From Acuticoccus yangtzensis (GTDB taxonomy: Bacteria > Pseudomonadota > Alphaproteobacteria > Rhizobiales > Amorphaceae): 64,000 nt of DNA. Shown piece after piece: positions 13,247-42,668 of the stretch. Both the position numbers and the translations under genes were made by a program. The notes beneath the pieces are model-generated. The model was not told the origin of the DNA, searched no databases, and saw nothing but the letters and a program-made list of their open reading frames with translations. The stretch covers positions 186,001-250,000 of the forward strand of contig NZ_MJUX01000005.1 in NCBI RefSeq assembly GCF_001927245.1. Direction: 5' to 3'. How positions within the stretch are numbered: the stretch's first letter is position 1; each line of letters starts with the position of its first letter.

Positions 13247-13267
13247 GGTCGTCCCTCGAGTTCCGTC

Positions 13268-15160: not shown

Positions 15161-17034
15161 GCAGCGTCCTTCACAACGCGCGCCATCTGCGGCGCACAGA
15201 CAAAATGTCCCGGTTCGGGCTCGACCATCACGGGCACCGCCCCCGGCTCCAGCCGGTAGGGTTCGGGCCACGCCGACGGATCCGAGGCACGCCCTGCCGA
15301 CAAACGCGCAAAGTCCAGCGGGCGATCCAGATTGGCATCGGGCACCGCGGTCAAGAGCGCCTGGGTGTAGGGATGAAGCGGATTGTCGATCACCGCGCGC
15401 GTCGGTCCCAGCTCGACGAGCCGGCCATGGCACATCACCGCGATGCGGGTGGCGAGATAGTCGACGACCGCCAGATTGTGGCTGACGAAGAGGTAGGTGA
15501 GGTTCAGCTCGCGCTGGAGATCGGCGAGAAGGTTCAGCACCTGCGCCTGAACCGAAACGTCGAGCGCGGACACCGGCTCGTCGCACACCAGAAGGTCCGG
15601 CCGCAGCGCAAGAGCGCGGGCGATGCCGACCCGCTGGCGCTGCCCGCCGGACAGCGAGTGCGGATAGCGGCGCAGGAACTTCGGGTCGAGACCGACGAGC
15701 TCCATCAGGTCGCGCACCCGTGCCGCGCGGCTCCCCTTGGTGCCGGCGTCGTGGATCACCATCGGCTCGCCGATCAGCTCGTTCACCGACATGCGCGGAT
15801 TGAGCGAGGAGAACGGGTCCTGGAAGACGAGCTGAACGCGGCGGCGGTAGGCGAGAAGATCGGCGCCGGAGAGCGTGGCGAGATCGCGCCAGCCCTCCCC
15901 CTCACGCACGCTCACCGTGCCGGAGGTGGGGGCGAAGGCGCGCATGATGGCCATCGCCATCGTCGTCTTGCCCGACCCCGATTCGCCGACGAGGCCGAGA
16001 CACTCGCCGGTGTTGATGGTGAAGGACACCTGGTCGATGGCGCGGACGGATTTGGGCGGCGCGAACAGACCGCGCTTCTTCAGCCGGAAACTCTTCACCA
16101 CGCTGTCGACCTTGATCAGCGGTTCGCCCGGTGTGCCGCCGCAGCGCTCGCCGAACCCGTCCAGCTTCGGCGTGATCGGCCGGATGGGCGAGAGACGCTC
16201 CTTCATGTCGAAGGTCGGCACCGCGTGGAGCAGCGCCTTCAGGTAAGGGTGTTCGGGCTTGGTGAAGATCTCGCGCGCCGATCCGCGCTCCACCACGCGG
16301 CCGTGGTAAACGACGACGATCTCGTCCGCCATGTTCGCCACCACGCCGAAATCGTGGGTGATGAGCAGGATCGACATGCCGAGTTCGCCCTGGACGTCGC
16401 GCAAGAGCTTCAGGATCTCGGCCTGGATGGTGACGTCGAGTGCGGTTGTCGGTTCGTCGGCGATGAGGAGCGCGGGGCGGCACATCATCGCCATGGCGAT
16501 CATCGCGCGCTGCCTGAGGCCGCCGGAGAGCTCGAACGGATAGGCGTCGAGCGCGCGGTCCGGGTCGGGGAAGCGCACGAGACGCAGCATGTCGCGCGTC
16601 GCCTCGCGGGCGGCGGCGGCGTCCATGCCGCGGTGCAGGCGCCCGGCCTCGCCGATCTGATCGCCGATGGTGTGGAGCGGTGACAGGCTCGTCATCGGCT
16701 CCTGAAAGATCATCGCGATGCGGTTGCCGCGAATGTCACGCATCGCGGCGCTGTCACGCGGCAGTGCGGCGAGATCCACCGTCCCGGCCGTTGCCGCCTC
16801 ACCGTCCGCAGCGGGCCGGTTGTCGCGAAAATAAAGCGAGCCGCCGGCGATCCGCGCAGGCGGCGGAAGCAGACCCATGACGGCTTGGCTGATCGTCGAC
16901 TTGCCGGAGCCCGATTCGCCGACGACGGCGACGGTCTTGCCCTCGGGGATCGAGAACGACACATCGTCCACCGCACGAACGAGGCCGTCCGCATGGTACT
17001 CCACCACAAGGTTACGCACGTCGAGGACGGTCAC
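15157..17034 (-). CDS. dual ATP-binding ABC transporter protein (OppD-OppF fusion type)
   Basis: This about 625-residue protein contains two complete nucleotide-binding domains. The first has Walker [10 protein letters not shown] near residue 40 and signature [12 protein letters not shown] near 155. The second has GESGSGKTT near 345 and [15 protein letters not shown] near 455. It thus combines the OppD and OppF roles, as in YejF. I chose the GTG at 17034 because GAGAGG lies upstream and the conserved [11 protein letters not shown] follows; an ATG at 17064 is also possible. It is the first gene of the importer operon. Confidence 0.94.
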
Positions 17035-22120: not shown

Positions 22121-23665
22121 TCAGACGATCGTCGCCTCGATCAGCTTCGGGCCCGGCTCGCGGACGCTGTCGCGGATCGCCCGCACCAGCGCCGCCGCGT
22201 CCGACACGCGCACGCCCGGCACACCCATCCCCTTGGCGATCGACACGAAGTCGAGCGCCGGACGGTTGATCTCCAGCATGTCGAGCGCGCTGCGGCCGGG
22301 ATTGGCGCCGACGCGGAAGAGCTCCTGCTTCAAAATCTCGTAGGTGCCGTTGGCGAAGATCACCGTGGTGACGTTGGCGCCCTCGCGCGCCTGGCTCCAC
22401 AGCGCCTGAATCGTGTACATCGCCGAGCCGTCCGCCTGCAGCGCCACCACCGGGCGGTCGGGACAGGCGATCGCCGCCCCCAGCGCCATCGGCGGGCCGA
22501 TGCCGATGGAGCCGCCGGTGATGGCGATCCAGCTCATCGGCGCCGCGCCCGGCGTCGCGTCGTAGATGCCGCGGCCCGACGTCAGCCCCTCGTCCACCAC
22601 GATGGCGTTCTCGGGAAGGGCTGCGGCGATGGCCGCCTCCAGCGCCAGATAGTCGATCGGGATCGCCTGCGGATCGACCGGGCGCGGTGCATCCTTCACC
22701 TTGGCCGGCCGCGCACCGACGCGGTCGGCGAGCTGGCGCACCGCGTCGGGGCCGTCCTCGTGCATGTCGGCAAGGGTCAGGCGGCTGCAGGCGTCGGGCA
22801 GCAGCGTCGAGGGCTTCCCCGGATAGGCGAAGAAGGCGACCGGCTGACGCGCCATGATCAGGATGACGTGGCGCACGTCCTTCAGCATCTCGAGCGCGAG
22901 GTCCACGGCGAACGGGATCTTCGGGAAATTCGCCCGGCCGCGACCGCGCTCGATGCGCCGGTTGGCCGAGGGGAGCGCCACCCGGCAGCCGGTCTTCTCG
23001 GCGATCCCGGCCAGCAGCGCCAGCGTCTCGTCCTGCTCAAGGATCGAATCGCCGGCCAGAATCATCGTCTCCTTGCCGAAGGCGAGGGCCGCCACCGCCT
23101 GGTCGAGCGCGCTGGAATCGATCCGCGCCGGACCCTGCGGGCGGCGCGGCTCGGCGACGACGCCGCCCTCGTCCCACCCCGTGTCGGAGGGGGCGATGAG
23201 GGTGGCGATGCGGCCGGGCGCACTCTTCGCGGCGGCCAGCGTCTCGGCCCCGTCGGCGCCGATCTCGGCGGCGGAACGGGTGATGCGCACGAAGTCGCTG
23301 AACGGGAGCGCTGCCCCCTCCACGTCGGCCGACAGCGGCGCGTCGTAGGCCTGGTGGCGCAGCGCATGGTCGCCGACGATGTTGACGATCGGCACCCGCG
23401 CCTTCTTGGCGTTGTGCAGGTTGGCCGAGGCGTTGGCTAAACCGGGGGCGAGGTGAAGCAGCGTTGCGGCAGGCCGGCCGGACATCCGCGCATAGCCGTC
23501 GGCCGCACCGGTGACGACGCCTTCGAAGAGGCCGAGAATACAGCGCATGAGGCGCGTGCGGTCGAGCGCGTCGACGAACTGCATTTCGGACGTGCCGGGG
23601 TTGGCGAAGCAGACGTCGACCCCGCCGCCGGACAGTGTTCGTACGAGGCTTTCAGCGCCGTTCAT
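22121..23665 (-). CDS. thiamine-pyrophosphate enzyme, acetolactate-synthase/benzoylformate-decarboxylase-like
   Basis: From the ATG at 23665 (GGAG upstream) the product is 514 residues with the three TPP-enzyme domains. The cofactor-activating Glu is in LGLFEGVVTGAADGYARM near residue 50. The Mg-TPP motif is ADGSAMYTIQALWSQAREG followed by FANGTYEIL near 425-455. The length is shorter than the about 560-580 residues of IlvB. The first Asp-Gly motif is ADGS, and no small regulatory subunit gene is adjacent, so a non-biosynthetic decarboxylase or carboligase is possible. It is divergent from the molybdenum hydroxylase operon, 235 nt away. Confidence 0.82.
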   Translation of the reverse strand: MNGAESLVRTLSGGGVDVCFANPGTSEMQFVDALDRTRLMRCILGLFEGVVTGAADGYARMSGRPAATLLHLAPGLANASANLHNAKKARVPIVNIVGDHALRHQAYDAPLSADVEGAALPFSDFVRITRSAAEIGADGAETLAAAKSAPGRIATLIAPSDTGWDEGGVVAEPRRPQGPARIDSSALDQAVAALAFGKETMILAGDSILEQDETLALLAGIAEKTGCRVALPSANRRIERGRGRANFPKIPFAVDLALEMLKDVRHVILIMARQPVAFFAYPGKPSTLLPDACSRLTLADMHEDGPDAVRQLADRVGARPAKVKDAPRPVDPQAIPIDYLALEAAIAAALPENAIVVDEGLTSGRGIYDATPGAAPMSWIAITGGSIGIGPPMALGAAIACPDRPVVALQADGSAMYTIQALWSQAREGANVTTVIFANGTYEILKQELFRVGANPGRSALDMLEINRPALDFVSIAKGMGVPGVRVSDAAALVRAIRDSVREPGPKLIEATIV

Positions 23666-23900: not shown

Positions 23901-24737
23901 ATGGCAACGCTCCGCCCGGTGACGATCGACGATGCCCTGGCCGCGCTGGCGGCCGGGCCGGGCAAGCTCTTGGCAGGCGGGACCGACGTTTACGCCGCCG
24001 CGGGGCCGCGCCTTGCGGGACCGGTGGTGGACCTGTCGCGCGTCGCCGGCCTGTCGACGATCGAGGCGGGGGCGGACGGCTGGCGCATCGGCGCCGGCGT
24101 CACCTGGTCGGCCCTTCGCGCCGCCCCGCTTCCCTCTGCGTTCGACGCCCTGAAGGCCGCCGCCGCGGAGGTCGGCTCGGTGCAGATCCAGAACCGCGCG
24201 ACCCTCGCCGGCAACCTGTGCAACGCCTCGCCCGCCGCGGACGGTGTGCCCGCCCTCCTCGCTCTGAACGCCGCGGTCGAGGTGGCCGCGGCCGGACGGC
24301 GCCGCCGCCTGCCGCTCGCCGACTTCATCCTCGGCCCGCGCCGCACCGCGCTGCAACCGGGCGAAATGGTGACGGCGATCCTGGTCCCGCCCCAGCCGGA
24401 GGGCGCCGCCGCAGTGTTCCACAAGCTTGGAGCGCGGCATTATCTCGTGATCTCCATCGCCATGGTGGCGGTGATGCTGGCGGCGGAGGGCGGCCGGATC
24501 ACCGACGCGCGGATCGCCGTCGGCGCCTGCTCGCCCGTGGCGATGCGGCTGGCGGGGCTGGAGGCGAAGCTCGTCGGCGCACCGTTGGAGCTCGCGGCCG
24601 CCTGCGCCGAGGCGGACGATCTCGTCCCGCTCAGCCCGATCGACGACGTGCGCGCCACCGCCTCCTATCGGCGCGAGGCCGCGCTCGTCCTGGTGCGCCG
24701 CGCCTTGGCCGAGGCGGCCGGAAGGCTGGCGCCATGA
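23901..24737 (+). CDS. molybdenum hydroxylase FAD-binding (medium) subunit, CoxM/XdhB-like
   Basis: The 278-residue protein begins at the ATG 23901 and has the FAD-binding PCMH fold motifs LLAGGTDVYAAAG near residue 20 and QNRATLAGNLCNASPAADG near 100-118. A CO_deh_flav_C region follows. In molybdenum hydroxylases this subunit passes electrons from the Fe-S clusters to an external acceptor. It overlaps the next gene by 4 nt (ATGA), and that gene encodes the other two functional modules, so together they form one complete enzyme. Confidence 0.93.
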   Translation: MATLRPVTIDDALAALAAGPGKLLAGGTDVYAAAGPRLAGPVVDLSRVAGLSTIEAGADGWRIGAGVTWSALRAAPLPSAFDALKAAAAEVGSVQIQNRATLAGNLCNASPAADGVPALLALNAAVEVAAAGRRRRLPLADFILGPRRTALQPGEMVTAILVPPQPEGAAAVFHKLGARHYLVISIAMVAVMLAAEGGRITDARIAVGACSPVAMRLAGLEAKLVGAPLELAAACAEADDLVPLSPIDDVRATASYRREAALVLVRRALAEAAGRLAP

Positions 24738-27484
24738 GCCTCACCGCCGATACCCGCGCCGAAACACCCCGCGCCACGCTTCTCGCCGGAGACGACGACA
24801 CGCTGATCCTCAACGGCGCCAGCGTGGCGCTGGACGCCCGCGACGGGGAGCGCCTCTCCGACGCGCTCCGCCGCCTCGGCGCGCTCGACGTGAAGGTCGG
24901 CTGCAACGCGGGCGACTGCGGCGCCTGCACCGTGCTTCTGGACGGCGACCCCGTGTGCGCCTGCCTCGTCGGCGCCACGCAGGCTGACGGCCGCACGGTG
25001 ACGACGCTCACCGGCCTCCTCGGCGACCCCGCCGTCCAGCGCCTGGCGGACGCCTTCCACCGCCTGAACGCCGCCCAGTGCGGCATCTGCACGCCGGGGA
25101 TGATGGTGAGCGCCGCTGCCCTCCTCGCCCGCACCAAGACCCCGACCGAGGCCGAGGTGAAGGACGCGCTCGGCGGCGTCCTGTGCCGCTGCACCGGCTA
25201 CCGGGCGATCATCGACGCCGTGATGGGTGCGCTCCGCCCCTCCCCCGCTGAGGACAGTGTCGGCGCCGCCGTCCCGCGTATCGACGGCCGCGCCAAGGTG
25301 ACCGGCGCCGAGCGCTTCGGCGACGACGTGGCCCCGGCGGGCGCGCTCGCGCTGCGCGTTGTGCGCTCCCCCTTCGCCCGCGCGGCGGTTACCCTTGGCG
25401 AGCTCGCCGCATTCGCCGCGACGACGCCGGGCGTCACCACCGTCCTCACCGCCGCCGACATTCCGGGCGCGAACCGCTTCGGCGTCATCCCCGCCTTCGC
25501 CGATCAGCCGGTGTTCGCCGCCGGGGAGACGCGGCACCGGGGCGAGGCCGTGGCCGCCATCGTCGGCGAGGCGGACGCGATAGCGGCGCTGGACCTTTCT
25601 GCCGTGCCCATCGCCTTCACCGCCCTACCCGCCGCCATGACACCGGAGGAAGCCGCCGACGCGCCTCCGCTGCACGAGGGGCGCCCCGGCAACCTGATGT
25701 GCGAAGGGCGCGTGGTGCGGGGCGACGCTGCGGCCGCCCTCGCCCGCGCCGCCGTCACCGCCACGGGCCGCTTCAGGTCGCCCTTCGTGGAGCACGCCTA
25801 CATCGAGCCCGAGGCCGGTTACGCGGCGCTGGTGGACGGAACGCTCGAGGTCCACGCCTCAACCCAGGCGCCGATCATGGACCGCGACAGCCTCGCCGAG
25901 ATCCTGGACCTCGCGCCGGACAAGGTGCGCATCGTGCCCACCGCGTGCGGCGGCGGCTTCGGCTCCAAGCTGGACCTTTCCATCCAGCCCTTCCTGGCGC
26001 TGGCGGCGCTCGTCACCGGCCGCCCCGTGCGCGCCGCCTATAGCCGCGCCGAATCGATGCAGTCGACCACCAAGCGCCACCCCTCCGACATCACGCTGAC
26101 GGTGGGTGCGACCGCGGACGGCACCCTGTGCGGCTTCGACTTCGCCGGCACCTTCGACACCGGCGCCTACGCCAGTTGGGGCCCGACGGTCGCCAACCGC
26201 GTGCCCGTCCACGCCTCCGGCCCCTACAGCATCGCCGACTACCGGGCGACGAGCCGCGCGGTGCACACCAACAACCCGCCCGCGGGCGCCTTCCGCGGCT
26301 TCGGCGTGCCCCAGTCCGCCATCGCCCAGGAAGTGCTGTTCGACGATCTCGCCCTGGCGCTCGGCATGGACCGGCTCGCCTTCCGCCGCCGCAACGCTCT
26401 CACCAACGGCGCCCCCACCGTCTGCGGCCAGGTGTTCGCCCAGGGCGTCGGCATCGGCGCCTGTCTCGACGCGCTGGCGCCGCACTGGGCGCGCGCCACC
26501 GCCGAGGCCGAAGCGGCGCAGGCGGGAACGGTGAAGCGCGGCGTCGGCATCGCGGCCGGCTGGTACGGCTGCGGCAACACGTCGATGCCCAACCCGTCGA
26601 CGATCCGCGCCGGGGTGCGGGCGGACGGGACGATCGTCCTCCACCAGGGCGCTGTCGACATCGGCCAAGGATCGAACACCGTCATCGCGCAAATCTTCGC
26701 CACCACGCTCGGCGTGCCACTGGCGGCGGTCGAAATCGTCGGCCCGGACACCGCGGTCACGCCGGACGCGGGCAAGACGTCGGCCTCGCGCCAGACCTTC
26801 GTGTCCGGCAATGCCGCCCGGCTCACCGCGCTCACGTTGCGCGCCGCCATCCTGCGCCTCGCCAACGCGGGCGAAGACGCCGTGATCGACACCGCGGATG
26901 GTCTCGCCGTGGTCGACCAAGGGCGGCGGCAGGTGGTGGACCTCTCCGGCAGGCTGGGCGATTACGCGCTGGAGGCGGCGGAGACCTACGACCCGCCGAC
27001 CGCGCCGCTGGACGAGAACGGCCAGGGCGCGCCCTACGCCGTCTACGGCTACGCGGCGCACATGGTGGAGCTCACCGTGGACACCGAGCTCGGCACCGTG
27101 CGGCTCCTGAAGGTGACGGCGGCGCACGACGTCGGCCGCGCCATCAACCCCGTGCTGGTGGAGGGGCAGATCGCCGGCGGCATCGCCCAGGGCGCCGGCA
27201 TGGCGCTGATGGAAGAGTACATCCCCGGCCGGACCGAGAACCTGCACGATTATCTCATCCCCACCATCGGCGACATTCCGCCGATCCAGTCCCTCATCGT
27301 GGAGGAGGCGGACGCGCACGGCCCATTCGGCGCCAAGGGCCTCGGCGAGCATGCGCTCATCCCCACGGCCCCGGCGATCCTCGGCGCCATCCGCCACGCC
27401 ACGGGCGCCCGGCTGACCGAGGTGCCCGCGACACCCGCCCGCGTTCTCGCCGCCATCAGCCCAGCGGCAAAGGCCACGCCATGA
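24734..27484 (+). CDS. molybdenum hydroxylase, fused [2Fe-2S] and molybdopterin-binding subunits
   Basis: The 916-residue protein joins two usually separate subunits. Residues 1-170 are the small subunit: plant-type cluster ligands C57, C62, C65 and C77, then C116, C119, C151 and C153 for the second cluster. From about 180 on is the aldehyde oxidase/xanthine dehydrogenase large subunit, with ACGGGFGSK near 415, NNPPAGAFRGFGVPQ near 515-529 and the catalytic Glu in GPFGAKGLGEHAL near 860. Such enzymes hydroxylate carbon next to ring nitrogen using water. The adjacent 6-hydroxynicotinate-reductase-like gene suggests an N-heterocyclic substrate; the exact one is unknown. Confidence 0.92.
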   Translation: MSLTADTRAETPRATLLAGDDDTLILNGASVALDARDGERLSDALRRLGALDVKVGCNAGDCGACTVLLDGDPVCACLVGATQADGRTVTTLTGLLGDPAVQRLADAFHRLNAAQCGICTPGMMVSAAALLARTKTPTEAEVKDALGGVLCRCTGYRAIIDAVMGALRPSPAEDSVGAAVPRIDGRAKVTGAERFGDDVAPAGALALRVVRSPFARAAVTLGELAAFAATTPGVTTVLTAADIPGANRFGVIPAFADQPVFAAGETRHRGEAVAAIVGEADAIAALDLSAVPIAFTALPAAMTPEEAADAPPLHEGRPGNLMCEGRVVRGDAAAALARAAVTATGRFRSPFVEHAYIEPEAGYAALVDGTLEVHASTQAPIMDRDSLAEILDLAPDKVRIVPTACGGGFGSKLDLSIQPFLALAALVTGRPVRAAYSRAESMQSTTKRHPSDITLTVGATADGTLCGFDFAGTFDTGAYASWGPTVANRVPVHASGPYSIADYRATSRAVHTNNPPAGAFRGFGVPQSAIAQEVLFDDLALALGMDRLAFRRRNALTNGAPTVCGQVFAQGVGIGACLDALAPHWARATAEAEAAQAGTVKRGVGIAAGWYGCGNTSMPNPSTIRAGVRADGTIVLHQGAVDIGQGSNTVIAQIFATTLGVPLAAVEIVGPDTAVTPDAGKTSASRQTFVSGNAARLTALTLRAAILRLANAGEDAVIDTADGLAVVDQGRRQVVDLSGRLGDYALEAAETYDPPTAPLDENGQGAPYAVYGYAAHMVELTVDTELGTVRLLKVTAAHDVGRAINPVLVEGQIAGGIAQGAGMALMEEYIPGRTENLHDYLIPTIGDIPPIQSLIVEEADAHGPFGAKGLGEHALIPTAPAILGAIRHATGARLTEVPATPARVLAAISPAAKATP

Positions 27485-28971
27485 CCGAGATTATCCCGCC
27501 CGCCGCATCGCCGGATCCCGGCGCCCCCGCCGCCAAGATCCGCTGCGACGCCTGCCCCGTGCTCTGCTACATCGCCGACGGGCGCACAGGCGCCTGCGAC
27601 CGCTACGCCAACCGCGCCGGAACCCTCGTCCGGCTCGACCCGCTGACGGTGATCGAAAACGGCACCGACAAGCTCGTCCCCTTCCTGCCGCGCCACGCCG
27701 AGAACTGGGACGTTCTGGGCACCGAGCGCACCTTCGTCACCGCCATCGGCGCGGGTACCACCTATCCGGACTACAAGCCCGCCCCCTTCATCATCTCCCA
27801 GCCGCTGGGCGACGAAGACATGGTCACCGTCGTGACGGAGGGGATCTTCAGCTATTGCGGCGCCAAGGTGAAGATCGACACCGACCGCCACATCGGCCCC
27901 GAGCGGGCGACGGTGCGGGTGGCGGGCGAGCCGATCGGCCACGTCACCACCGGCGAATACGGCTCCAAGATGCTCTCGCTGGGCGGGGTCGAGCATCTCA
28001 CCGGCGGCACCAAGAAGGAGGGCCGCGTCACCTGCGACGCGCTGCTGGCCCTGTGCAACCGCGAGCCGGTGGAAATGCGGATCGACGACGGGGCCGACCT
28101 CGTCATCACCGCCGACGAGGCGCCGATCGTCAACGGCGTGACAGAGGCGCGGATGCGCGTCGGCTGTGGCTCGGCCACCATCGGCATGTTCGCCAAGCAG
28201 TGGGTGGGCCTCGTCGACGAGGTGGTGGTGGTGGACGACCACATCACCGGCGTCCTCTCCGAGCACCAGTCCGGCCGCATGCTCGACCTGACGCCGAGCG
28301 GCATTCGCATCAAAGGCCGCCGCTCCACACCCGGCCGCTACTTCCAGGTGGCCGGACCGGGGACGGCCTGGGGCGGAACCGACATCACCGACCCGCTCAC
28401 CATCCTCGGCGCGTTCGACCCCAAGAAGGCGCGCCCCGGCCTCACCCTGCTGATGGTCTCCACCACCGGAGAGCAATCGGCCTATTTCGTGCTCGACGAG
28501 GCGCTCGTTCCGCGGCCCGCCCCGCTGCCGGGTCCCCTGTTGGCGGTGGTGGAGCGGATCGCGGAAAATTGTGAGCCGGCGGTGGCGTCCGTACTTTTCA
28601 TGGGCGGCGCGGGCGGATCGCTGCGTGCAGGGGTGACGGAAAACCCCATCGCCCTCACCCGTTCGGTGCGCGAGGCTTTAACGCGCGTGACATGCGGCGG
28701 TGCGCAGGCCTACCTTTGGCCGGGCGGCGGGATCACCTTCATGGTGGACGTGATCCAGATGCCGACCAACGCCTTCGGCTCGGTGCCGACGCCTGCGCTC
28801 GTGGCGCCGATCGAATTCACCATGCGCGCGGCGGACTATGCCGCGCTCGGCGGGCATGTGGACGAGGTCCGGCCGCTCGCCGACGTTATTCGTGAAGCGG
28901 AAGCCAAGGGCCTTCGCACAGTACCGGGCGGCCCCACCCGCGCCGGTGACAGAAGAGGAAAGGCCGCATGA
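27481..28971 (+). CDS. 6-hydroxynicotinate reductase-like Fe-S flavoprotein
   Basis: The 496-residue protein starts with a cysteine cluster IRCDACPVLCYIADGRTGAC (C22, C25, C29, C39) that could bind an Fe-S cluster. The body carries GCGSATIGMFAKQWVG and LWPGGGITFMVDV. The overall pattern is that of proteins annotated 6-hydroxynicotinate reductase, known from the nicotinate fermenter Eubacterium barkeri, where it reduces the hydroxylated pyridine ring. I assign it by remembered similarity, not by alignment. It overlaps its neighbours on both sides by 4 nt, so it is made together with the hydroxylase. An aerobic-type host and a missing rest of the pathway mean the natural substrate may differ. 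Confidence 0.75.
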   Translation: MTEIIPPAASPDPGAPAAKIRCDACPVLCYIADGRTGACDRYANRAGTLVRLDPLTVIENGTDKLVPFLPRHAENWDVLGTERTFVTAIGAGTTYPDYKPAPFIISQPLGDEDMVTVVTEGIFSYCGAKVKIDTDRHIGPERATVRVAGEPIGHVTTGEYGSKMLSLGGVEHLTGGTKKEGRVTCDALLALCNREPVEMRIDDGADLVITADEAPIVNGVTEARMRVGCGSATIGMFAKQWVGLVDEVVVVDDHITGVLSEHQSGRMLDLTPSGIRIKGRRSTPGRYFQVAGPGTAWGGTDITDPLTILGAFDPKKARPGLTLLMVSTTGEQSAYFVLDEALVPRPAPLPGPLLAVVERIAENCEPAVASVLFMGGAGGSLRAGVTENPIALTRSVREALTRVTCGGAQAYLWPGGGITFMVDVIQMPTNAFGSVPTPALVAPIEFTMRAADYAALGGHVDEVRPLADVIREAEAKGLRTVPGGPTRAGDRRGKAA

Positions 28972-29849
28972 TGACCGACCCGACCGCAGCACTTCTTCCC
29001 GACGGCCGCCTTCACCTGCAACACGGGCCGATCGACGTCATCGTCTCGGCCGACGGCAGCGAGACGGCGGTGGAGGCCGCCTTCACCGCCGCAGCCGGGC
29101 GCTTCGCCACGGTGCTGACCGAGATCGTCGAGGAGCTTTCCGAGCTGCGCCTGCCCGCACGCTCCGATACCGAGATGCAGGGCCTCGTCGCATCACGCAT
29201 GACGAAGGCGGTGCGCCCCTTCGCGTCCGACACCTTCATCACGCCGATGGCCGCCGTCGCGGGCGCTGTCGCCGACGAGATCCTCGACACCATGACCGCG
29301 GCCGCCCCCTTGACCCGCGCCTTCGTCAACAATGGCGGCGATATCGCGGTTCACCTCTCCGGCGGGCAGACCGCCCATGCGCGCATCGCCGCCCACGACA
29401 ACACCCACCTCGGCACGGTCCGGCTGCGCTCGGGCGACGGCATCGGCGGCATCGCCACGTCCGGCCGCACGGGGCGCAGCCTGTCGCTGGGGATCGCCGA
29501 TTCGGTGACGGTGCTCGCCGCCTCAGCGGCGGAGGCGGACGCGGCGGCGACGCTCCTCGCCAACGCCGTCGACCTTCCCGGGCATCCCGCGGTGGAGCGG
29601 GCACCGGCCGAAACCATCGACCCCGATTCGGACCTCGGCTCGCGCCTCGTCACCACCGGCTGCGGCACACTGACGACGGCGGACAAGAAGATCGCTATCG
29701 GCAAGGGCGCCCGCCTGGCGCGGCAGATGCTGGCCGATGGCACCATCCGCGGCGTCGCGTTCTACCTGCAGGGCGAGGCGCGGTCGCTCGGCTGGGGCGA
29801 TTCCATCAGCCGCAACACCCTGCCTGACGATCACGAGGACGAAGGGTGA
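28968..29849 (+). CDS. UPF0280 family protein (ApbE-like fold), unknown function
   Basis: The 293-residue protein matches the UPF0280 pattern: FASDTFITPMAAVAGAVADE near 85-104, AFVNNGGDIAVHLSGG near 118-133, and GIATSGRTGRSLSLGIADSV near 162-181. These three segments resemble ApbE flavin transferase elements (a pre-FMN site and an NGGGD-like turn), but activity is not established. It is coupled by 4-nt overlaps to the reductase-like gene upstream and to a tiny ORF downstream, implying a role in the same pathway, perhaps cofactor loading of the reductase. Confidence 0.85.
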   Translation: MMTDPTAALLPDGRLHLQHGPIDVIVSADGSETAVEAAFTAAAGRFATVLTEIVEELSELRLPARSDTEMQGLVASRMTKAVRPFASDTFITPMAAVAGAVADEILDTMTAAAPLTRAFVNNGGDIAVHLSGGQTAHARIAAHDNTHLGTVRLRSGDGIGGIATSGRTGRSLSLGIADSVTVLAASAAEADAAATLLANAVDLPGHPAVERAPAETIDPDSDLGSRLVTTGCGTLTTADKKIAIGKGARLARQMLADGTIRGVAFYLQGEARSLGWGDSISRNTLPDDHEDEG

Positions 29850-30028
29850 GCGAGACGGTCCCGAACGGGCTCCCCGCACGCGGCCCGGCGCGGGTCGCCA
29901 TCGCCGGCTTCGGCCGCCGGGGCGAGGCGGCCGACACGCCCGTGCCCGGCCGCCTCGCCCCGGCCGACATCCGCCTTGGCCCGGAACGCATTCGGCCGGA
30001 TCTGCCCGCCCGCCTGGCCACCGACTGA
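29846..30028 (+). CDS. small translationally coupled hypothetical protein (60 aa)
   Basis: A GTG start shares GTGA with the UPF0280 stop. The 60-residue product is basic and proline-rich, with VAIAGFGRRGEAADTPVPGR and DIRLGPERIRPDLPARLATD, and has no membrane segment or Cys. I do not recognise it. The coupling, protein-like composition and its place at the end of the operon favour a real gene; its short length and lack of known relatives are the reasons for doubt. Confidence 0.48.
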   Translation: MSETVPNGLPARGPARVAIAGFGRRGEAADTPVPGRLAPADIRLGPERIRPDLPARLATD

Positions 30029-30093
30029 GGGCGGGCTCACCCCGTCCAGCCTATCCCTGCGGCGCATCTGACCTTTTCGCCGCAACATCCGGA

Positions 30094-30121
30094 CTTGTGA
30101 GGACCCGTTAACGGGTTATGA
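30094..30121 (+). promoter_or_regulatory. promoter with palindromic operator for the Liv-type importer
   Basis: TTGTGA (30094-30099) and TATGAC (30116-30121) are spaced 16 nt apart. A perfect 14-bp palindrome, ACCCGTTAACGGGT (30102-30115), fills almost the whole spacer. This is 50-80 nt upstream of the substrate-binding protein start. A dimeric repressor bound here would block polymerase; the MarR protein encoded at the end of the same operon is the obvious candidate. The regulator-site link is inference. Confidence 0.5.
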
Positions 30122-30171
30122 CTTCACCCGATGGCGAAGATCCTCTTCGCTGCCACGACGAGAGGACTGAC

Positions 30172-31401
30172 ATGCTCACGCGACGCGCAACTTTCCGGGC
30201 CGGCATTGCCGCGCTGGCCCTTGCCGTCACGCCGGCCGCCTTTGCCCCGGCGGCGTTGGCTCAGGACGGCGCGCCGATCAAGGTCGGCGAGATCAACTCC
30301 TACACGCGCATGGCCGCCTTCACCGAGCCCTACAAGAAGGGCTGGGAGCTGGCGCTCGAGGAGATCAACGCCGCCGGGGGCATCAAAGGCCGTCCCATCG
30401 AGGTGCTGTCGCGGGACGACGGCGGCGATCCGGCGACCGCCATCCGCATCGCCGACGAGCTCGTCAACCGCGAGAACGTCTCGCTGATCTTCGGCACCTT
30501 CCTGTCCAATATCGGCCTTGCGGTGTCGGACTTCGCCAACCAGAGCCAGACGCTGTTCATCGCGTCCGAGCCGCTGACGGACGAGCTGATCTGGGCATCG
30601 GGCAACCGCTACACCTACCGGCTGCGGCCCGGCACCCACATGCAGGCCGCCATGCTGGCCGAGCAGGCCGCCAAGACCGACGCCATGACCTGGGCCGTCA
30701 TCGCCCCGAACTACGCCTATGGCACCGACGCGGTGGAGGCCTTCAAGCGCGAGCTGACCAAGCTGAAGCCGGACGTGAAGTTCGTCGAGGAGCAGTGGCC
30801 GCCCCTCTTCAACATCGACGCCGGGTCCACCGTGCGCGCGCTGGAGCAGTCCAAGCCCGACGGCATCTTCAACGTCACCTTCGGCGGTGACCTCGCCAAG
30901 TTCGTGCGCGAAGGCTCGCTGCGCGGCCTGTTCGACGACCGCGTCGTGGTCTCGCTTCTCTCCGGCGAGCCGGAATATCTGGAGCCGCTGGGGGCCGAGG
31001 CGCCCGAGGGCTGGATCGTCACCGGCTATCCCGGAATGGACGTCGACACGCCCGAGCACACGCCCTTCGCCGAGGCCTACCAGGCCAAGTGGGGCGAGGC
31101 GCCGAAGACCGGTTCCATCGTCGGCTACAACTCCATGATGACCATCAAGGCGCTTCTGGAGAAGGCACCTAACCTCGAGACCGAGACGCTGCTGACCACG
31201 ATGGAAGGGCTTCGCGTCACCGCGCCGACGGGCGACTTCCTGTTCCGCCCGGTCGACAACCAGGCCACCATGGGCGCCTGGGTCGGCAAGACCGGCATCG
31301 TCGACGGCGCCCCGGTGATGGTCGACTGGCACTATGCGGACGGCGAGGACTACCTCCCCTCCGAAGCCGACGCGCTGAAACTGCGCCCGGAAAACCAGTA
31401 A
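30172..31401 (+). CDS. branched-chain-amino-acid-type ABC transporter substrate-binding protein
   Basis: From the ATG at 30172 (AGAGGA upstream) the product is 409 residues, with a signal peptide containing a twin-arginine-like RR (LTRRATFRAGIAALAL) and cleavage near ALA-QDG. The mature part has the Peripla_BP_6 landmarks IKVGEINSYTRMAAFTEPYKKGWELALEEINAAGGIKG (split here as two parts, residues about 33-70) and SRDDGGDPATAIRIADEL. It is the first gene of a SBP-permease-ATPase-ATPase-regulator operon just after the ring-attacking enzymes, so it probably captures their substrate or a related aromatic acid. Confidence 0.93.
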   Translation: MLTRRATFRAGIAALALAVTPAAFAPAALAQDGAPIKVGEINSYTRMAAFTEPYKKGWELALEEINAAGGIKGRPIEVLSRDDGGDPATAIRIADELVNRENVSLIFGTFLSNIGLAVSDFANQSQTLFIASEPLTDELIWASGNRYTYRLRPGTHMQAAMLAEQAAKTDAMTWAVIAPNYAYGTDAVEAFKRELTKLKPDVKFVEEQWPPLFNIDAGSTVRALEQSKPDGIFNVTFGGDLAKFVREGSLRGLFDDRVVVSLLSGEPEYLEPLGAEAPEGWIVTGYPGMDVDTPEHTPFAEAYQAKWGEAPKTGSIVGYNSMMTIKALLEKAPNLETETLLTTMEGLRVTAPTGDFLFRPVDNQATMGAWVGKTGIVDGAPVMVDWHYADGEDYLPSEADALKLRPENQ

Positions 31402-31411
31402 GCCGAGACGG

Positions 31412-31440
31412 ACGGCGCGGTCCTCGGGGCCGCGCCGTTC
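31412..31440 (+). terminator. hairpin after the binding-protein gene
   Basis: Arms ACGGCGCGG (31412-31420) and CCGCGCCGT (31430-31438) form a perfect 9-bp stem followed by TCCTTTAT. It begins 10 nt after the stop codon of the binding protein and 107 nt before the permease start. It probably causes partial termination, giving more binding protein than membrane components. Confidence 0.5.
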
Positions 31441-31546
31441 CTTTATCCGGCGCGGCCCATCCGCTGCCGCGCCACTTTGCCGACCGTGCCGCCTGCCCGC
31501 CGATCCCCCGCCACGCCGTCCCGAACCATGGAGCCAGACCCGCCGC

Positions 31547-33391
31547 ATGATGGGCTTCTATTTCGCCCAGCTCCTCACCGGGCTTGCCAACGCCTCCTCG
31601 CTCTTCCTCATCGCGTCCGGGCTGTCGATCATCTTCGGCGTGACGCGCGTCGTGAACTTCGCCCACGGCTCGCTCTACATGCTGGGCGCCTACATCGCCT
31701 ATTCGCTGGTGACGACCCTGCCGGGGGTGTTCGGCTTCTGGACGGGCGTCATCCTGGCCGCCGTCGCCACCGCCTTCATCGGCGCGGCGATCGAGATTCT
31801 GATCCTGCGGCGCATCTATCACTCACCTGAGCTCTTCCAGCTCGTCGCCACCTTCGGCGTCGTCCTCATCGTGCAGGATGCGGCGCTCGCCATCTGGGGT
31901 TCGGAGGACCTTCTCGGCCCCCGCGCTCCGCTGCTCGACCGGGCCGTGCGCATCTTCGGTGAGCCGATCCCCGAATACGACCTCGCCCTCATCGTCATCG
32001 GGCCGGTTGTGCTCGGCCTCATCTGGCTGCTCTTCCAGCGCACACGGTGGGGCATCCTGGTACGCGCCGCAACGCAGGACCGCGAGATGGTCGGCGCCCT
32101 CGGCGTCAATCAGCACGTCCTCTTCACGTCCACCTTCATGGTCGGCTCGTTTCTCGCCGGGCTCGGCGGGGCGCTGCAGGTGCCGCGCGAATCGGTCAAC
32201 TTGTTGATGGACCTCAACATCATCGGCCAGGCCTTCGTGGTGGTGGTGATCGGCGGCATGGGCTCGGTGACCGGGGCCTTCGTGGCGGCCGTCATCATCT
32301 CCGTCGCCAACGCCTTCGGGGTGCTGGTGTGGCCGCAGATCTCGCTGATCCTGCCCTTCCTCGTCATGGCGGTTGTCCTCATCGTGCGGCCATACGGCCT
32401 GTTCGGAACGCCCGCCTCGGCGCATGGGGCGAGCGTTCCCGAAGCGCCGCTGCGGGCGATGCCCCCGGCGGGCATCGCCGTGGCGGCCATCGTCGCGGTC
32501 GGCGCGGCGCTGTTGCCGCTCGCCGACGACGGGTTTCTTCTGGTGCTCGGGATCGACCTTCTCGTCGCCATGCTCTTCGCGGCCAGCCTGCACCTTCTCA
32601 TGGGTGTCGGCGGCATGGTCTCCTTCGGCCACGCAGCCTACTTCGGCCTCGGCGCCTATGCGGCCGCGCTGGCGGTCAAATCGCTCGGCCTGCCGATGCT
32701 GCCGGCGATGCTGCTCGGCCCGGTCGCGGCCGCGTTCGGGGCCATGGTGTTCGGCTGGTTCTGCGTGCGCCTGTCGGGCGTCTACCTCGCCATGCTGACC
32801 TTGGCGGCGGCGCAAATCCTGTGGGGCATCACCTTCCAGTGGCAGAGCGTCACCGGCGGTGACGACGGCATTCTGGGCGTCTGGCCCGCACGGTGGGCGT
32901 CAGACCGCGCGGTCTACTTCTACATCGCCCTCGCGCTGTGCGGGGCGGGGCTCTTGATCATCCGCCGGATCGCCCACTCGCCCTTCGGCTATGTCCTGCG
33001 CGGCGGCCGCGATTCGGCGCTGCGGGCGGAGGCGATCGGCATCGACCTGAAGGCGCATCAGTGGCTGGGCTTCATCCTGGCGGGCGCGCTGGCGGGGGTC
33101 GCGGGGTCGGTCTTCGTCTTCTCCAAGGGCTCCGTCTTTCCCGACACGCTCGCCATCGGCCACTCGGTGGACGGGCTCATCATGGTGCTCCTCGGCGGCG
33201 TGCAGTCGCTGCTCGGCCCCCTCTTCGGCGCGGCCGCCTTCGTGCTCATCGAGGATTGGGTGATGCGCCTCGACCATTGGCGGGCCATCTTCGGCGTCAT
33301 CATCCTCGCCATCGTGCTTCTGGCGCCGGACGGGATCGCCGGCGGGGTCGGACGGCTCCTCACCCTCCTGCGCCTGCGGAGGCCGGCATGA
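31547..33391 (+). CDS. fused LivH-LivM type ABC transporter permease
   Basis: The 614-residue protein joins both permeases. Residues 1-290 are LivH-like ([20 protein letters not shown] near 25-44, [17 protein letters not shown] near 233-249). Residues about 305-614 are LivM-like ([20 protein letters not shown] near 350-369, and [20 protein letters not shown] near 498-517). Between them is a short Ala/Pro linker at residues 289-305. Two domain permeases fused in this order occur in some alphaproteobacterial HAAT importers. The stop overlaps the next ATPase start by 4 nt. Confidence 0.94.
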
Positions 33392-34182
33392 GCGCCGTTC
33401 TGACCATCGACAAGCTGACCAAACGGTTCGGCGGGCTGACGGCGGTGTCGGACGTGTCCTTCGCGCTGAAGGCGGGCGAGTTTCTGGCACTCATCGGCCC
33501 GAACGGGGCGGGCAAGACGACCTGCTTCAACATGCTGAACGGCTACATCAAGCCGGACGGCGGCACCGTCGCGCTGAAGGGCCGGCCGATCACCGGGCTT
33601 GCCCCGCGCGCGGTGTGGCGGCTCGGCGTCGGGCGAACGTTCCAGATCACGCAGACCTTCGCCTCGATGACGGTGGCGGAGAACGTGCAGATGGCGCTGA
33701 TCTCCCACCACAGGCGCACGCTGGACCTGTTCTCGCGCGCAAGCCGCCTCTACCGCGCGGAGGCGGAGGCGCTGCTGTCGCGCGTCGGCATGCTGGGCGA
33801 GGCGGACCGCGCCGCCACCGCCCTCGCCTATGGCGACCTGAAGCGGCTGGAGCTGGCGGTGGCGCTCGCCCACGCCCCCACCGTACTCCTGATGGACGAG
33901 CCGACCGCCGGCATGGCCCAGGCCGAGCGCACGGCGCTGATGGCGCTGGTGGCCGACATCGTCGCCGCCGAAGGGCTCAGCGTGCTCTTCACCGAGCATG
34001 ACATGGACGTGGTCTTCAATCACGCTCACCGCGTCCTCGTCCTCAATCGGGGCGAGCTGATCGCCGAAGGGACGGGCGAAGAGATCCGGGCGAATGCGAC
34101 CGTCCAGGCGGTCTATCTGGGCGGCGGGACCTTGTCGTCGTTCGGGGCCACGCCGCCTCAGAACGGTGGAGTTTCGCCATGA
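33388..34182 (+). CDS. LivG-type ABC transporter ATP-binding protein
   Basis: The 264-residue protein has Walker A GPNGAGKT near residue 39, the LivG landmark [20 protein letters not shown], and Walker [12 protein letters not shown]. The signature loop is [15 protein letters not shown] rather than the usual LSYG, a single substitution at its second position. It energises the fused permease with the LivF-type ATPase that follows. The start is coupled to the permease stop (ATGA). Confidence 0.94.
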
Positions 34183-34204
34183 GCGCCCGTCCAACGCCAG
34201 GAAT

Positions 34205-34226
34205 GACGTGCAAGGCCATGCACGTC
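34205..34226 (+). other. inverted repeat inside the importer operon
   Basis: Arms GACGTGCA (34205-34212) and TGCACGTC (34219-34226) form an 8-bp perfect stem with a 6-nt loop in the 81-nt gap between the two ATPase genes. No T-run follows, so it more likely stabilises or processes the mRNA than terminates it. Confidence 0.4.
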
Positions 34227-34263
34227 GTGGTTGGTTATCCTGCAACCGGCAAGGTGACGGACC

Positions 34264-34965
34264 ATGCTTGAGGTCACCGCACTCAACACATTCTATGGCG
34301 GCGCGCACATCCTGCGGGACGTGACGCTCGCCGTCGGCCCGCACGAGGTGCTGGCGCTGCTCGGCCGCAACGGCGCCGGCAAGTCGACCACCATGCGTTC
34401 GGTCATGGGGCTGGTGCGCCCGCGCTCCGGCCGCGTCACCTTCGCCGGGGCGGACATGACGGGCGCTGCACCCTACAAGGCGTGCCGGGCGGGCCTCGGC
34501 TACGTGCCGGAGGACCGGCGTGTGTTCCGCGAGCTGACGGTGGCCGAAAACCTCGAGGTCGGGCGGCGCGAGGCGCGGCCGGATGCTCCCTCGTGGAGTG
34601 TCGATCAGCTCTTCGGCCTCTTCCCCAACCTTGCCGAGCGGCGCGGGACGGCCGCCGGGCGCCTTTCGGGCGGCGAGCAGCAGATGCTGACCATCGCCCG
34701 CACCTTGATGGGCAATCCGCGGCTGATCCTGCTGGACGAGCCGTCCGAGGGGATCTCACCCCTCATCGTGGAGCAGATGGCACAGGTGATCGGCGAGATG
34801 AAATCTCGTGGCCTCGCGGTCATGGTGTCCGAGCAGAACCTTCATTTTGCGCGCCTGGTGGCGGACCGCGCGGTGATCATCGAGAAGGGCGAGGTCCGCT
34901 TCGAGGGGACCTTCGCCGCCCTCGACGCCGCGCCGGAGATTGCACGGGAGACACTCGCACTATGA
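34264..34965 (+). CDS. LivF-type ABC transporter ATP-binding protein
   Basis: The 233-residue protein has Walker A GRNGAGKST near residue 35, GLGYVPEDRRVFRELTVAEN, signature LSGGEQQMLTIARTLM and Walker B LILLDEPSEGISPLIVEQM, all classic LivF. AAGGTGA lies 7 nt before the ATG. It is the second ATPase of the importer and its stop overlaps the MarR regulator start by 4 nt. Confidence 0.96.
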   Translation: MLEVTALNTFYGGAHILRDVTLAVGPHEVLALLGRNGAGKSTTMRSVMGLVRPRSGRVTFAGADMTGAAPYKACRAGLGYVPEDRRVFRELTVAENLEVGRREARPDAPSWSVDQLFGLFPNLAERRGTAAGRLSGGEQQMLTIARTLMGNPRLILLDEPSEGISPLIVEQMAQVIGEMKSRGLAVMVSEQNLHFARLVADRAVIIEKGEVRFEGTFAALDAAPEIARETLAL

Positions 34966-35411
34966 GCGAGGAACGTTCGCAGGCCGGGTCCGACAGCGAC
35001 CCCGGCTACGTCCTCGACGATCAGATCGGTTATCTGATGCGCCTGGCGACGCAGCGTCACACGGCGATCTTTCAGGACCGGATGTCAGACGGATTGACGC
35101 CGACACAGTTCGCCCTTCTCAACCGCTTGGCCGAGGTGGGGCCGAGTTCGCAGAACCATCTCGGCCGCCTCGCCGCGCTGGACGTGGCGACGGTGAAGGG
35201 TGTGGTGGATCGGCTTGCCGCAAAGGGATACGTCACCTTGGCGCCCGACCCGTCGGACGGGCGGCTGCGCATCGTCTCCCTGTCGCCGGCGGGCGAGGCG
35301 CTCATTCCCGAGCTGCACCGTTGCGGCCGGGCGATCACCGCCGAAACGCTGAAGCCGCTGACGAGTCGCGAGCGCGACACGGTGATCAGGCTGCTGCGCA
35401 AGCTGGCCTGA
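34962..35411 (+). CDS. MarR family transcriptional regulator
   Basis: The 149-residue protein has the MarR winged helix: LTPTQFALLNRLAEVG, then the recognition helix LDVATVKGVVDRLAAKGYV near 75-93, and the wing DPSDGRLRIVSLSPAGEAL. MarR proteins are dimers that bind short palindromes and are released by small phenolic or aromatic ligands. It is translationally coupled to livF, so it very likely controls the importer and the upstream catabolic genes; the palindrome at 30102-30115 is the candidate site. Confidence 0.93.
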   Translation: MSEERSQAGSDSDPGYVLDDQIGYLMRLATQRHTAIFQDRMSDGLTPTQFALLNRLAEVGPSSQNHLGRLAALDVATVKGVVDRLAAKGYVTLAPDPSDGRLRIVSLSPAGEALIPELHRCGRAITAETLKPLTSRERDTVIRLLRKLA

Positions 35412-42380: not shown

Positions 42381-42668
42381 ATGCAACCTTTGACCCGCAA
42401 CGACATCCTCGTCCGCCCCTCCTGGGCGCGGCTGAAGGCGTGCAAGGTCCGCGGCCACCCGGTCCTCCTCGTGCCTGAGCAGGTGCTTTACCCCTGCCCC
42501 ACCACCGTCGAGGTGCTGGAGCGGTTGGAAAGCCCCACCCTTTACGGCGCCGTGATCGACGCGCTCGCCGCCGACTATGACGCGCCGGCCGACGTGATCG
42601 AGACGGACCTCACACCGCTCGTCTCCGGCCTTCTGGAGCAAGGTTATGTCCGACGCATCGACGCTTGA
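42381..42668 (+). CDS. pqqD: PqqA-binding chaperone PqqD
   Basis: The 95-residue protein has the RRE (RiPP recognition element) pattern: HPVLLVPEQVLYPCPTTVEVLERL at about 26-49 (split into two parts when read in the fold) and ending DLTPLVSGLLEQGYVRRI. PqqD presents PqqA to the radical SAM enzyme PqqE. It overlaps pqqE by 23 nt. pqqB and pqqC, which usually lie between pqqA and pqqD, are absent here. Confidence 0.93.
   Translation: MQPLTRNDILVRPSWARLKACKVRGHPVLLVPEQVLYPCPTTVEVLERLESPTLYGAVIDALAADYDAPADVIETDLTPLVSGLLEQGYVRRIDA

What the first reader, a model, noticed from the sequence alone, without database searches (positions are those of the whole stretch)
23901..35411. Candidate undescribed N-heterocycle catabolic system with its own importer and regulator
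One strand carries a complete three-part molybdenum hydroxylase (FAD subunit plus fused Fe-S/Moco subunit), a 6-hydroxynicotinate-reductase-like Fe-S protein, a UPF0280 protein, a 60-codon coupled ORF, a Liv-type importer and MarR. Six of the joints are start/stop overlaps. Oxidative hydroxylation followed by ring reduction is the logic of anaerobic nicotinate fermentation. The usual later enzymes (enamidase, 2-hydroxymethylglutarate dehydrogenase and so on) are absent, so the substrate or ring opening may be new.
Basis: partly seen in the sequence, partly recalled or inferred. Interest (0 to 1): 0.72.

Follow-up and report, generated by a model that had tools for sequence, protein, structure and literature searches.

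The report
Nicotinate-degradation operon without its ring opener
This looks like a bacterial operon for breaking down vitamin B3 (nicotinate) by a known hydroxylate-then-reduce route; it is interesting because its usual ring-opening enzyme was not found, related bacteria suggest that an ATP-dependent enzyme pair can do that job instead, and it carries an uncharacterised protein that travels with the reductase.

Summary
The genes are real and as described; the host is Acuticoccus or very near it. The cluster is not undescribed: PMC3511419 (2012) describes it for Azorhizobium, Bradyrhizobium and strain SG-6C, where nicotinate is hydroxylated and reduced to THON. In two sets of relatives the molybdenum hydroxylase is swapped with a NicAB-type hydroxylase (48 v 9 of 60 loci; 40 v 15 of 55; never both), and an Hnr-linked amidohydrolase matches the solved enamidase 2VUN (E 1e-106). 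The open question is ring opening. Of 97 Hnr-bearing genomes searched, 45 have enamidase, 47 a HyuA at 55% identity or more, one both, six neither; 61 Hnr-less genomes have neither at these levels. HyuAB is thus the likely second THON ring opener. The window's genome and two sister genomes have neither, only a sister HyuAB (52-54%), so their ring opening is unsettled. UPF0280, a term in no paper of the library searched, occurs in exactly the same 68 of 385 genomes as Hnr. It is a remote ApbE (flavin transferase) relative without that family's HxxDPxxG segment; I propose that it matures or completes the reductase. The 60-codon ORF is a cupin-gene remnant. All reactions are inferred.

The parts
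23901..24737 (+). FAD subunit of xanthine-oxidase-family molybdenum hydroxylase (proposed nicotinate 6-hydroxylase)
   Evidence: Pfam FAD_binding_5 2.4e-40 and CO_deh_flav_C 8.6e-16; swapped with NicAB in relatives
24734..27484 (+). Fused 2Fe-2S/molybdopterin subunit of the same hydroxylase
   Evidence: Pfam Fer2, Fer2_2, Ald_Xan_dh_C, MoCoBD_1, MoCoBD_2; no NCBIfam equivalog reaches its cut-off
27481..28971 (+). Hnr-like 6-hydroxynicotinate reductase
   Evidence: 64-74% identical to proteins on 26 plasmids, 17 of them annotated 6-hydroxynicotinate reductase; conserved N-terminal cysteine motif and further invariant cysteines; no PDB sequence match, no Foldseek match at E<=0.001
28968..29849 (+). 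UPF0280 protein, remote ApbE relative; proposed maturation factor or subunit of Hnr
   Evidence: NCBIfam NF003322 370 bits over cut-off 290; same 68 of 385 genomes as Hnr; ApbE similarity of the family; PDB 2o34 1.8e-11 with the family profile
29846..30028 (+). 60-codon ORF: remnant of a cupin gene, probably not functional
   Evidence: tail aligns with cupins of sister species L290 and L291, 0 of 2000 shuffles as high for either; no tblastn match in 16 related stretches
30172..31401 (+). Periplasmic binding protein of Liv/Urt-type importer
   Evidence: Pfam Peripla_BP_6 1.8e-66 (scanned from 30178)
31547..33391 (+). Fused LivH-LivM permease
   Evidence: BPD_transp_2, two stretches
33388..34182 (+). 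LivG-type ATPase
   Evidence: ABC_tran and BCA_ABC_TP_C
34264..34965 (+). LivF-type ATPase
   Evidence: ABC_tran
34962..35411 (+). MarR-family regulator
   Evidence: MarR_2 4.9e-12; a MarR match at >=40% identity in 43 of 61 Hnr loci

Best explanation
It is the nicotinate operon of an Acuticoccus species. The Liv-type importer takes up nicotinate or a close relative, and MarR senses a pathway compound. The FAD + 2Fe-2S/Moco hydroxylase makes 6-hydroxynicotinate, and Hnr reduces this to 1,4,5,6-tetrahydro-6-oxonicotinate (THON). UPF0280, an ApbE-like protein, is Hnr's constant partner and most likely attaches or inserts its flavin. The ring is opened by an enzyme encoded elsewhere. In other Acuticoccus that is enamidase. 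In this organism and two sisters no enamidase was found, and a HyuAB-type ATP-dependent lactamase is the leading candidate. Shown here: gene content, conservation, co-occurrence and mutual replacement. Inferred: substrates, reactions, the UPF0280 role and the ring opener of this species. The confidence below is for the substrate and upper route; for UPF0280 as maturation factor I would say 0.55, for the sister HyuAB as the opener in this species 0.35.
For: Same cluster described for nicotinate via THON in Azorhizobium, Bradyrhizobium, R. palustris and SG-6C (PMC3511419 passages). Molybdenum hydroxylase and NicAB: 48 Mo, 9 NicAB, 0 both, 3 neither of 60 loci; 40, 15, 0, 0 of 55 named loci of 20 kb or more (the two sets share at least A. 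mangrovi). The Hnr-linked amidohydrolase of Sulfitobacter matches PDB 2vun ENAMIDASE, E 1e-106 over 383 residues; four Acuticoccus genomes carry a 77-79% relative of it away from hnr, divergent from a ferredoxin-NADP reductase gene in all four. UPF0280 and Hnr occupy the same 68 of 385 genomes; UPF0280 is directly downstream of hnr on the same strand in 59 of 61 loci. The UPF0280 family resembles ApbE: 27 of 46 members hit PF02424 at E<=10, best 5.9e-5; hhalign probability 87.9, P 3e-6. Recalled, source not held: E. barkeri Hnr contains covalently bound flavin.
Against: No biochemistry. Hnr could not be compared directly with the E. barkeri enzyme. The window's own UPF0280 was not among the 27 members that hit ApbE; the family lacks the HxxDPxxG segment, so it may not transfer FMN, and its ApbE match covers 121 columns only. 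In the 80 named loci UPF0280 was not found in 4 stretches, two of them 21.4 and 14.8 kb long (L148, L171). No enamidase was found in the organism's assembly, so the pathway as published is not complete there. AA_synth, present in 72 of 80 named loci, was not found in the genome either (no control genome rang). The hydroxylase reaches no NCBIfam equivalog cut-off, so its substrate rests on context. Two loci with the Mo hydroxylase also have weak NicA-like neighbours (45 and 51%, with NicB-like 27 and 28%; L133, L158), below the thresholds used. The own HyuA lies outside the Hnr-linked clade.
Confidence: 0.85

Rival explanations
1. The operon degrades a different N-heterocycle (for example another pyridine carboxylate, hydroxypyridine or pyrazine).
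For: No equivalog model fixes the hydroxylase substrate. No close enamidase or AA_synth was found in this genome, and AA_synth is absent at this spot in both sister species too, which could mark a change of substrate.
Against: Hydroxylase, Hnr, UPF0280, importer and MarR are syntenic; they are 70-91% identical between the window and its two enamidase-less sisters, and 57-82% identical to three Acuticoccus that keep enamidase. NicAB replaces the hydroxylase elsewhere.
Confidence: 0.08
2. The lineage has lost the lower pathway: the operon only converts nicotinate to THON (co-metabolism, detoxification or cross-feeding), or is slowly decaying.
For: Three related Acuticoccus genomes (G000, G746, G748) show neither an enamidase of 62% or more nor a HyuA of 55% or more. 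AA_synth is gone and in the window even the cupin that took its place is a remnant.
Against: The catalytic genes and the importer are matched at 70-91% identity in both sisters. All three have a HyuA at 52-54% identity to the Hnr-linked one, the sisters' copies being 83-86% identical to the own one, and the four enamidase-bearing Acuticoccus lack it (best 45%).
Confidence: 0.2
3. UPF0280 is a catalytic or electron-transfer subunit of Hnr rather than a maturation factor.
For: One-to-one co-occurrence in 385 genomes and overlapping genes (28968/28971) are as expected for a subunit. The HxxDPxxG segment of ApbE is missing.
Against: The remaining similarity is to a maturation enzyme family. Recalled: the E. 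barkeri enzyme was described as one polypeptide.
Confidence: 0.35
4. HyuAB in Hnr genomes serves another step or a different compound and does not open the THON ring.
For: HyuA falls far below the caprolactamase cut-off (481.5 v 1000 bits). The test by phylogenetically independent pairs is small: 4 of 5 pairs opposite, 0 the same way, p 0.125; with the 'neither' rows kept, on average 3.4 of 6 opposite, 0 the same, median p 0.25. A HyuA of 51-53% occurs in Hnr-less G752 and G011.
Against: 45 enamidase, 47 HyuA, 1 both, 6 neither of 97 Hnr genomes, against 0 and 0 of 61 Hnr-less genomes. At least five label changes are forced on the Hnr tree for each. The related OplAB opens the six-membered delta-valerolactam with ATP (PMC11033972 abstract).
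Confidence: 0.2

Closest known systems
Nicotinate degradation cluster of Azorhizobium caulinodans / Bradyrhizobium / SG-6C (PMC3511419)
   [quoted passage not shown] my inference). Named Bradyrhizobium loci show Hnr-UPF0280-AA_synth-importer-MarR.
   Different: Those Bradyrhizobium loci have NicAB as hydroxylase and often enamidase in the same stretch; here the hydroxylase is FAD + Fe-S/Moco, with no AA_synth and no enamidase.
Eubacterium barkeri nicotinate fermentation
   Same: Hydroxylation, then reduction of 6-hydroxynicotinate to THON, then hydrolytic opening (PMC9304392 passages); the enamidase of relatives matches PDB 2vun.
   Different: No later fermentation enzymes in this operon; Acuticoccus is an aerobic genus (recalled); Hnr not directly compared.
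ApbE, FAD:protein FMN transferase (PF02424)
   Same: Shared GGD, TSG and VTV-A-ADA-AT motifs with UPF0280.
   Different: UPF0280 lacks the HxxDPxxG segment, and its first 98 or so residues were not aligned.
ATP-dependent lactamases: OplAB, CapAB caprolactamase, N-methylhydantoinase
   Same: Hydantoinase_A/Hydantoinase_B pair, as in HyuAB of Hnr genomes and of this genome.
   Different: No substrate shown; both HyuA proteins scanned are far below the caprolactamase cut-off.

Membership tests
Proteobacterial hnr (THON-type nicotinate) gene cluster | Hnr family protein next to UPF0280 | tested here: met
Proteobacterial hnr (THON-type nicotinate) gene cluster | a hydroxylase of NicAB or Mo/FAD/Fe-S type | tested here: met
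   family level only; substrate not shown
Proteobacterial hnr (THON-type nicotinate) gene cluster | Liv-type importer and MarR | tested here: met
Complete published THON pathway (with enamidase) | enamidase homologue in cluster or genome | tested here: not met
   best own-genome match E 7e-4 over 50 residues; none at 1e-20; assembly 96% complete
Complete published THON pathway (with enamidase) | homology of this Hnr to the E. barkeri enzyme | not testable with these tools
   sequence not held; the paper reports 42% for the SG-6C homologue
Complete published THON pathway (with enamidase) | enzyme activities on nicotinate, 6-hydroxynicotinate and THON | not testable with these tools
   needs assays
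ApbE flavin transferase | profile similarity to PF02424 | tested here: met
   for the family: 27 of 46 members at E<=10, best 5.9e-5, the window's own protein not among them; hhalign 87.9% over 121 columns
ApbE flavin transferase | HxxDPxxG segment (exact in 6 of the 9 ApbE rows; its H and last G in 9 of 9) | tested here: not met
   gap in UPF0280
Hnr-linked HyuAB (for own pair at G000:C12) | falls inside the 38-row clade of Hnr-genome HyuA | tested here: not met
   pairs with G011 (100/98), sister to the 38-row clade (100/99)
Caprolactamase CapAB | NCBIfam equivalog cut-off | tested here: not met
   481.5 (L034) and 493.1 bits (own) for HyuA against 1000
GcvT C-terminal barrel (part of Hnr) | fold match | tested here: inconclusive

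The most novel reading that the evidence does not exclude
The reductive nicotinate pathway of Proteobacteria has two interchangeable ring openers: the hydrolytic metalloenzyme enamidase, and a HyuAB pair that spends ATP to open the THON lactam. In this Acuticoccus sub-lineage a third variant (the sister HyuAB, or an unknown enzyme) has replaced both. UPF0280 is a dedicated flavin-attachment or maturation factor for Hnr, an enzyme for which no solved relative was found.
Probability: 0.45. Interest if true: 0.65.

Novelty: new variant of a known kind. Interest (0 to 1): 0.5.

Why it matters
If true, it gives an enzyme to an unassigned step in about half of the Hnr-bearing genomes examined, ties a protein family whose name is in no paper of the library searched to a defined reductase, and makes both testable by single deletions. 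It bears on the fate of nicotinate and of the neonicotinoid residue 6-chloronicotinate, which enters the same route in SG-6C (PMC3511419).
Full report
Observation. Pfam and NCBIfam confirm FAD_binding_5, Fer2/Fer2_2, MoCoBD_1/2, Peripla_BP_6, BPD_transp_2, ABC_tran and MarR. UPF0280 matches NF003322 above its cut-off. Hnr has no Pfam or NCBIfam match at E<=0.001.

Organism. The window lies on contig 25 of a 5.04 Mb, 29-contig assembly. The best Hnr match among named genomes is Acuticoccus mangrovi, 77%. A genome of the window's genus, G745, has its hnr on a contig of 578214 bases, the length of the A. mangrovi record. So the organism is an Acuticoccus or very near it.

What the cluster is. Hnr is in 68 of 385 genomes of the class and in 32 of 398 sampled from the phylum (the samples overlap). 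On plasmids it is annotated as 6-hydroxynicotinate reductase in 17 of 26 records. In 61 loci (54 genomes, 7 plasmids) UPF0280 is present in 61, directly downstream in 59. In 80 named loci it was found in 76 and AA_synth (PF06684) in 72 (several loci are short, but L148 and L171, 21.4 and 14.8 kb, also lack UPF0280). PMC3511419 (passages read) describes this cluster in A. caulinodans, B. japonicum USDA110, R. [quoted passage not shown] PMC9304392 (passages) gives the same ring reduction and hydrolytic opening for E. barkeri and Azorhizobium.

Substrate. The Mo/FAD/Fe-S hydroxylase and a NicAB-type hydroxylase exclude each other around hnr: of 60 loci 48 have the first, 9 the second, 0 both, 3 neither; of 55 named loci of at least 20 kb, 40, 15, 0 and 0. 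The two sets share at least A. mangrovi, and two loci with the Mo type have weak NicA-like neighbours below the thresholds used (L133, L158). NicB carries Moco and cytochrome c domains; its name is the record's own, and that P. putida NicAB hydroxylates nicotinate is recalled. This replacement is the main reason to assign nicotinate. It is inference, not an assay.

Ring opening. The amidohydrolase linked to hnr in many relatives (Sulfitobacter copy) matches PDB 2vun, ENAMIDASE, E 1e-106. Other loci instead carry HyuA and HyuB. I therefore searched whole genomes with both proteins: 55 Hnr-bearing and 25 Hnr-less genomes, then 42 further Hnr-bearing and 36 Hnr-less. That is 97 of the 110 Hnr-bearing genomes found; the other 13 were left out. 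Enamidase (62% or more; the next matches are 45% or less) is in 45 of 97 Hnr genomes and 0 of 61 others. HyuA (55% or more) is in 47 of 97 and 0 of 61. One genome has both (G554). Six have neither: G000 (the window's), G746 and G748, which are its nearest relatives, and G226, G779 and G313, of 70, 90 and 86% completeness. The HyuA threshold was set after seeing the data and the gap is narrow: 55% (G104) is counted, 54% (G748) is not. Hnr-less genomes with a HyuA of 51-53% exist (G752, G011). A tree of 48 HyuA rows, most of them drawn from Hnr genomes, puts 38 rows, all from Hnr-bearing genomes or loci, in one clade with 100/99 support; the HyuA found were not placed on it. On a 69-row Hnr tree the two labels need 8 and 7 changes, at least 5 each forced by starred branches, so on the gene tree the two openers have replaced each other repeatedly. 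The strict paired test is under-powered: 4 of 5 independent pairs go opposite ways, none the same way, p 0.125; with the rows that have neither kept in, on average 3.4 of 6 opposite, none the same, median p 0.25. Chemistry is plausible: OplAB hydrolyses the six-membered delta-valerolactam with ATP (PMC11033972, abstract), and caprolactamase CapAB is sequence-related to 5-oxoprolinases and hydantoinases (PMC8453981, search listing).

The window's own lineage. Four other Acuticoccus genomes have enamidase at 77-79%, away from the hnr operon and divergent from a ferredoxin-NADP reductase gene. In G000, G746 and G748 none was found. They carry instead a HyuA of 52-54%, in G000 with a HyuB of 58% at C12:484833-488521. 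The own HyuA is in the sister clade; the copies of G746 and G748 were not on the tree but are 86 and 83% identical to it. Its neighbours, read by eye, do not look like a linked catabolic cluster, and a like pair occurs in Hnr-less G752 (HyuB 77%, HyuA 74% to the own pair). So it is the best candidate here but not a strong one; a third enzyme, a missed enamidase in the unassembled 4%, or a truncated pathway remain possible.

AA_synth and the 60-codon ORF. A. mangrovi (G745), G747 and G750 have AA_synth between UPF0280 and the binding protein; G746 and G748 have a cupin gene there (Cupin_2 4.4e-14 for the G748 copy); the window has the 60-codon ORF. Its tail PGRLAPADIRLGPERIRPDL aligns with PGRLATTDIHLAPERTQTNL of the G746 cupin: score 60 against a best of 56 in 2000 shuffles, and 57 against 55 for the G748 cupin. 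With position and frame this makes it a remnant, though the margin over the best shuffle is small. Absence of AA_synth near hnr is commoner in HyuAB genomes (10 of 25) than in enamidase genomes (3 of 30; Fisher p 0.012, not corrected for kinship; 9 of 23 and 2 of 27, p 0.014, without short loci).

UPF0280 and Hnr. The same 68 of 385 genomes hold both. UPF0280 is a distant ApbE relative: 27 of 46 members hit PF02424 (best 5.9e-5; the window's own protein does not), and profile comparison with nine plasmid FMN transferases gives probability 87.9, P 3e-6, aligned on GGD, TSG and VTV-A-ADA-AT, with the HxxDPxxG segment missing. PDB 2o34, an unnamed hypothetical protein, matches at 1.8e-11. I recall, from an abstract not held here, that E. 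barkeri Hnr has covalently bound flavin and iron-sulphur clusters; that makes a flavin-maturation role the most economical reading. Hnr was modelled at pLDDT 77, pTM 0.71. Foldseek gave nothing at E<=0.001. A weak GcvT C-terminal barrel signal came from two methods, Pfam at residues 131-162 and VIA at 127-213.

Verdict. A member of a known cluster in its upper pathway, and a variant in its lower one. The comparative result on HyuAB and UPF0280 is the part worth testing.

Noticed in passing
window 22121-23665 (-): An acetolactate-synthase-like gene (name by eye, not searched) lies divergent to the operon and is syntenic in A. mangrovi and three of four other Acuticoccus stretches read, but in none of the 47 wider loci first compared. 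Role in the pathway unknown.
   Followed up: partly
L290:12361-12810, L291 gap: A cupin gene has taken the place of AA_synth in two sister species and is reduced to a remnant in the window.
   Followed up: partly
L032-L078, L118-L131, L132-L211: AA_synth (PF06684, function not known to me) is present in 72 of 80 named hnr loci, often in two copies, and is absent more often in HyuAB-type genomes.
   Followed up: partly
L032, L034, L038 and others: A ring-hydroxylating dioxygenase alpha subunit sits inside some hnr clusters (9 of 61 loci); purpose unclear.
   Followed up: no
window 42390-43800: By eye only: a PqqD-like and a radical-SAM (PqqE-like) gene, suggesting PQQ synthesis genes.
   Followed up: no
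window 11028-17034 (-): By eye only: a peptide-type ABC importer operon.
   Followed up: no
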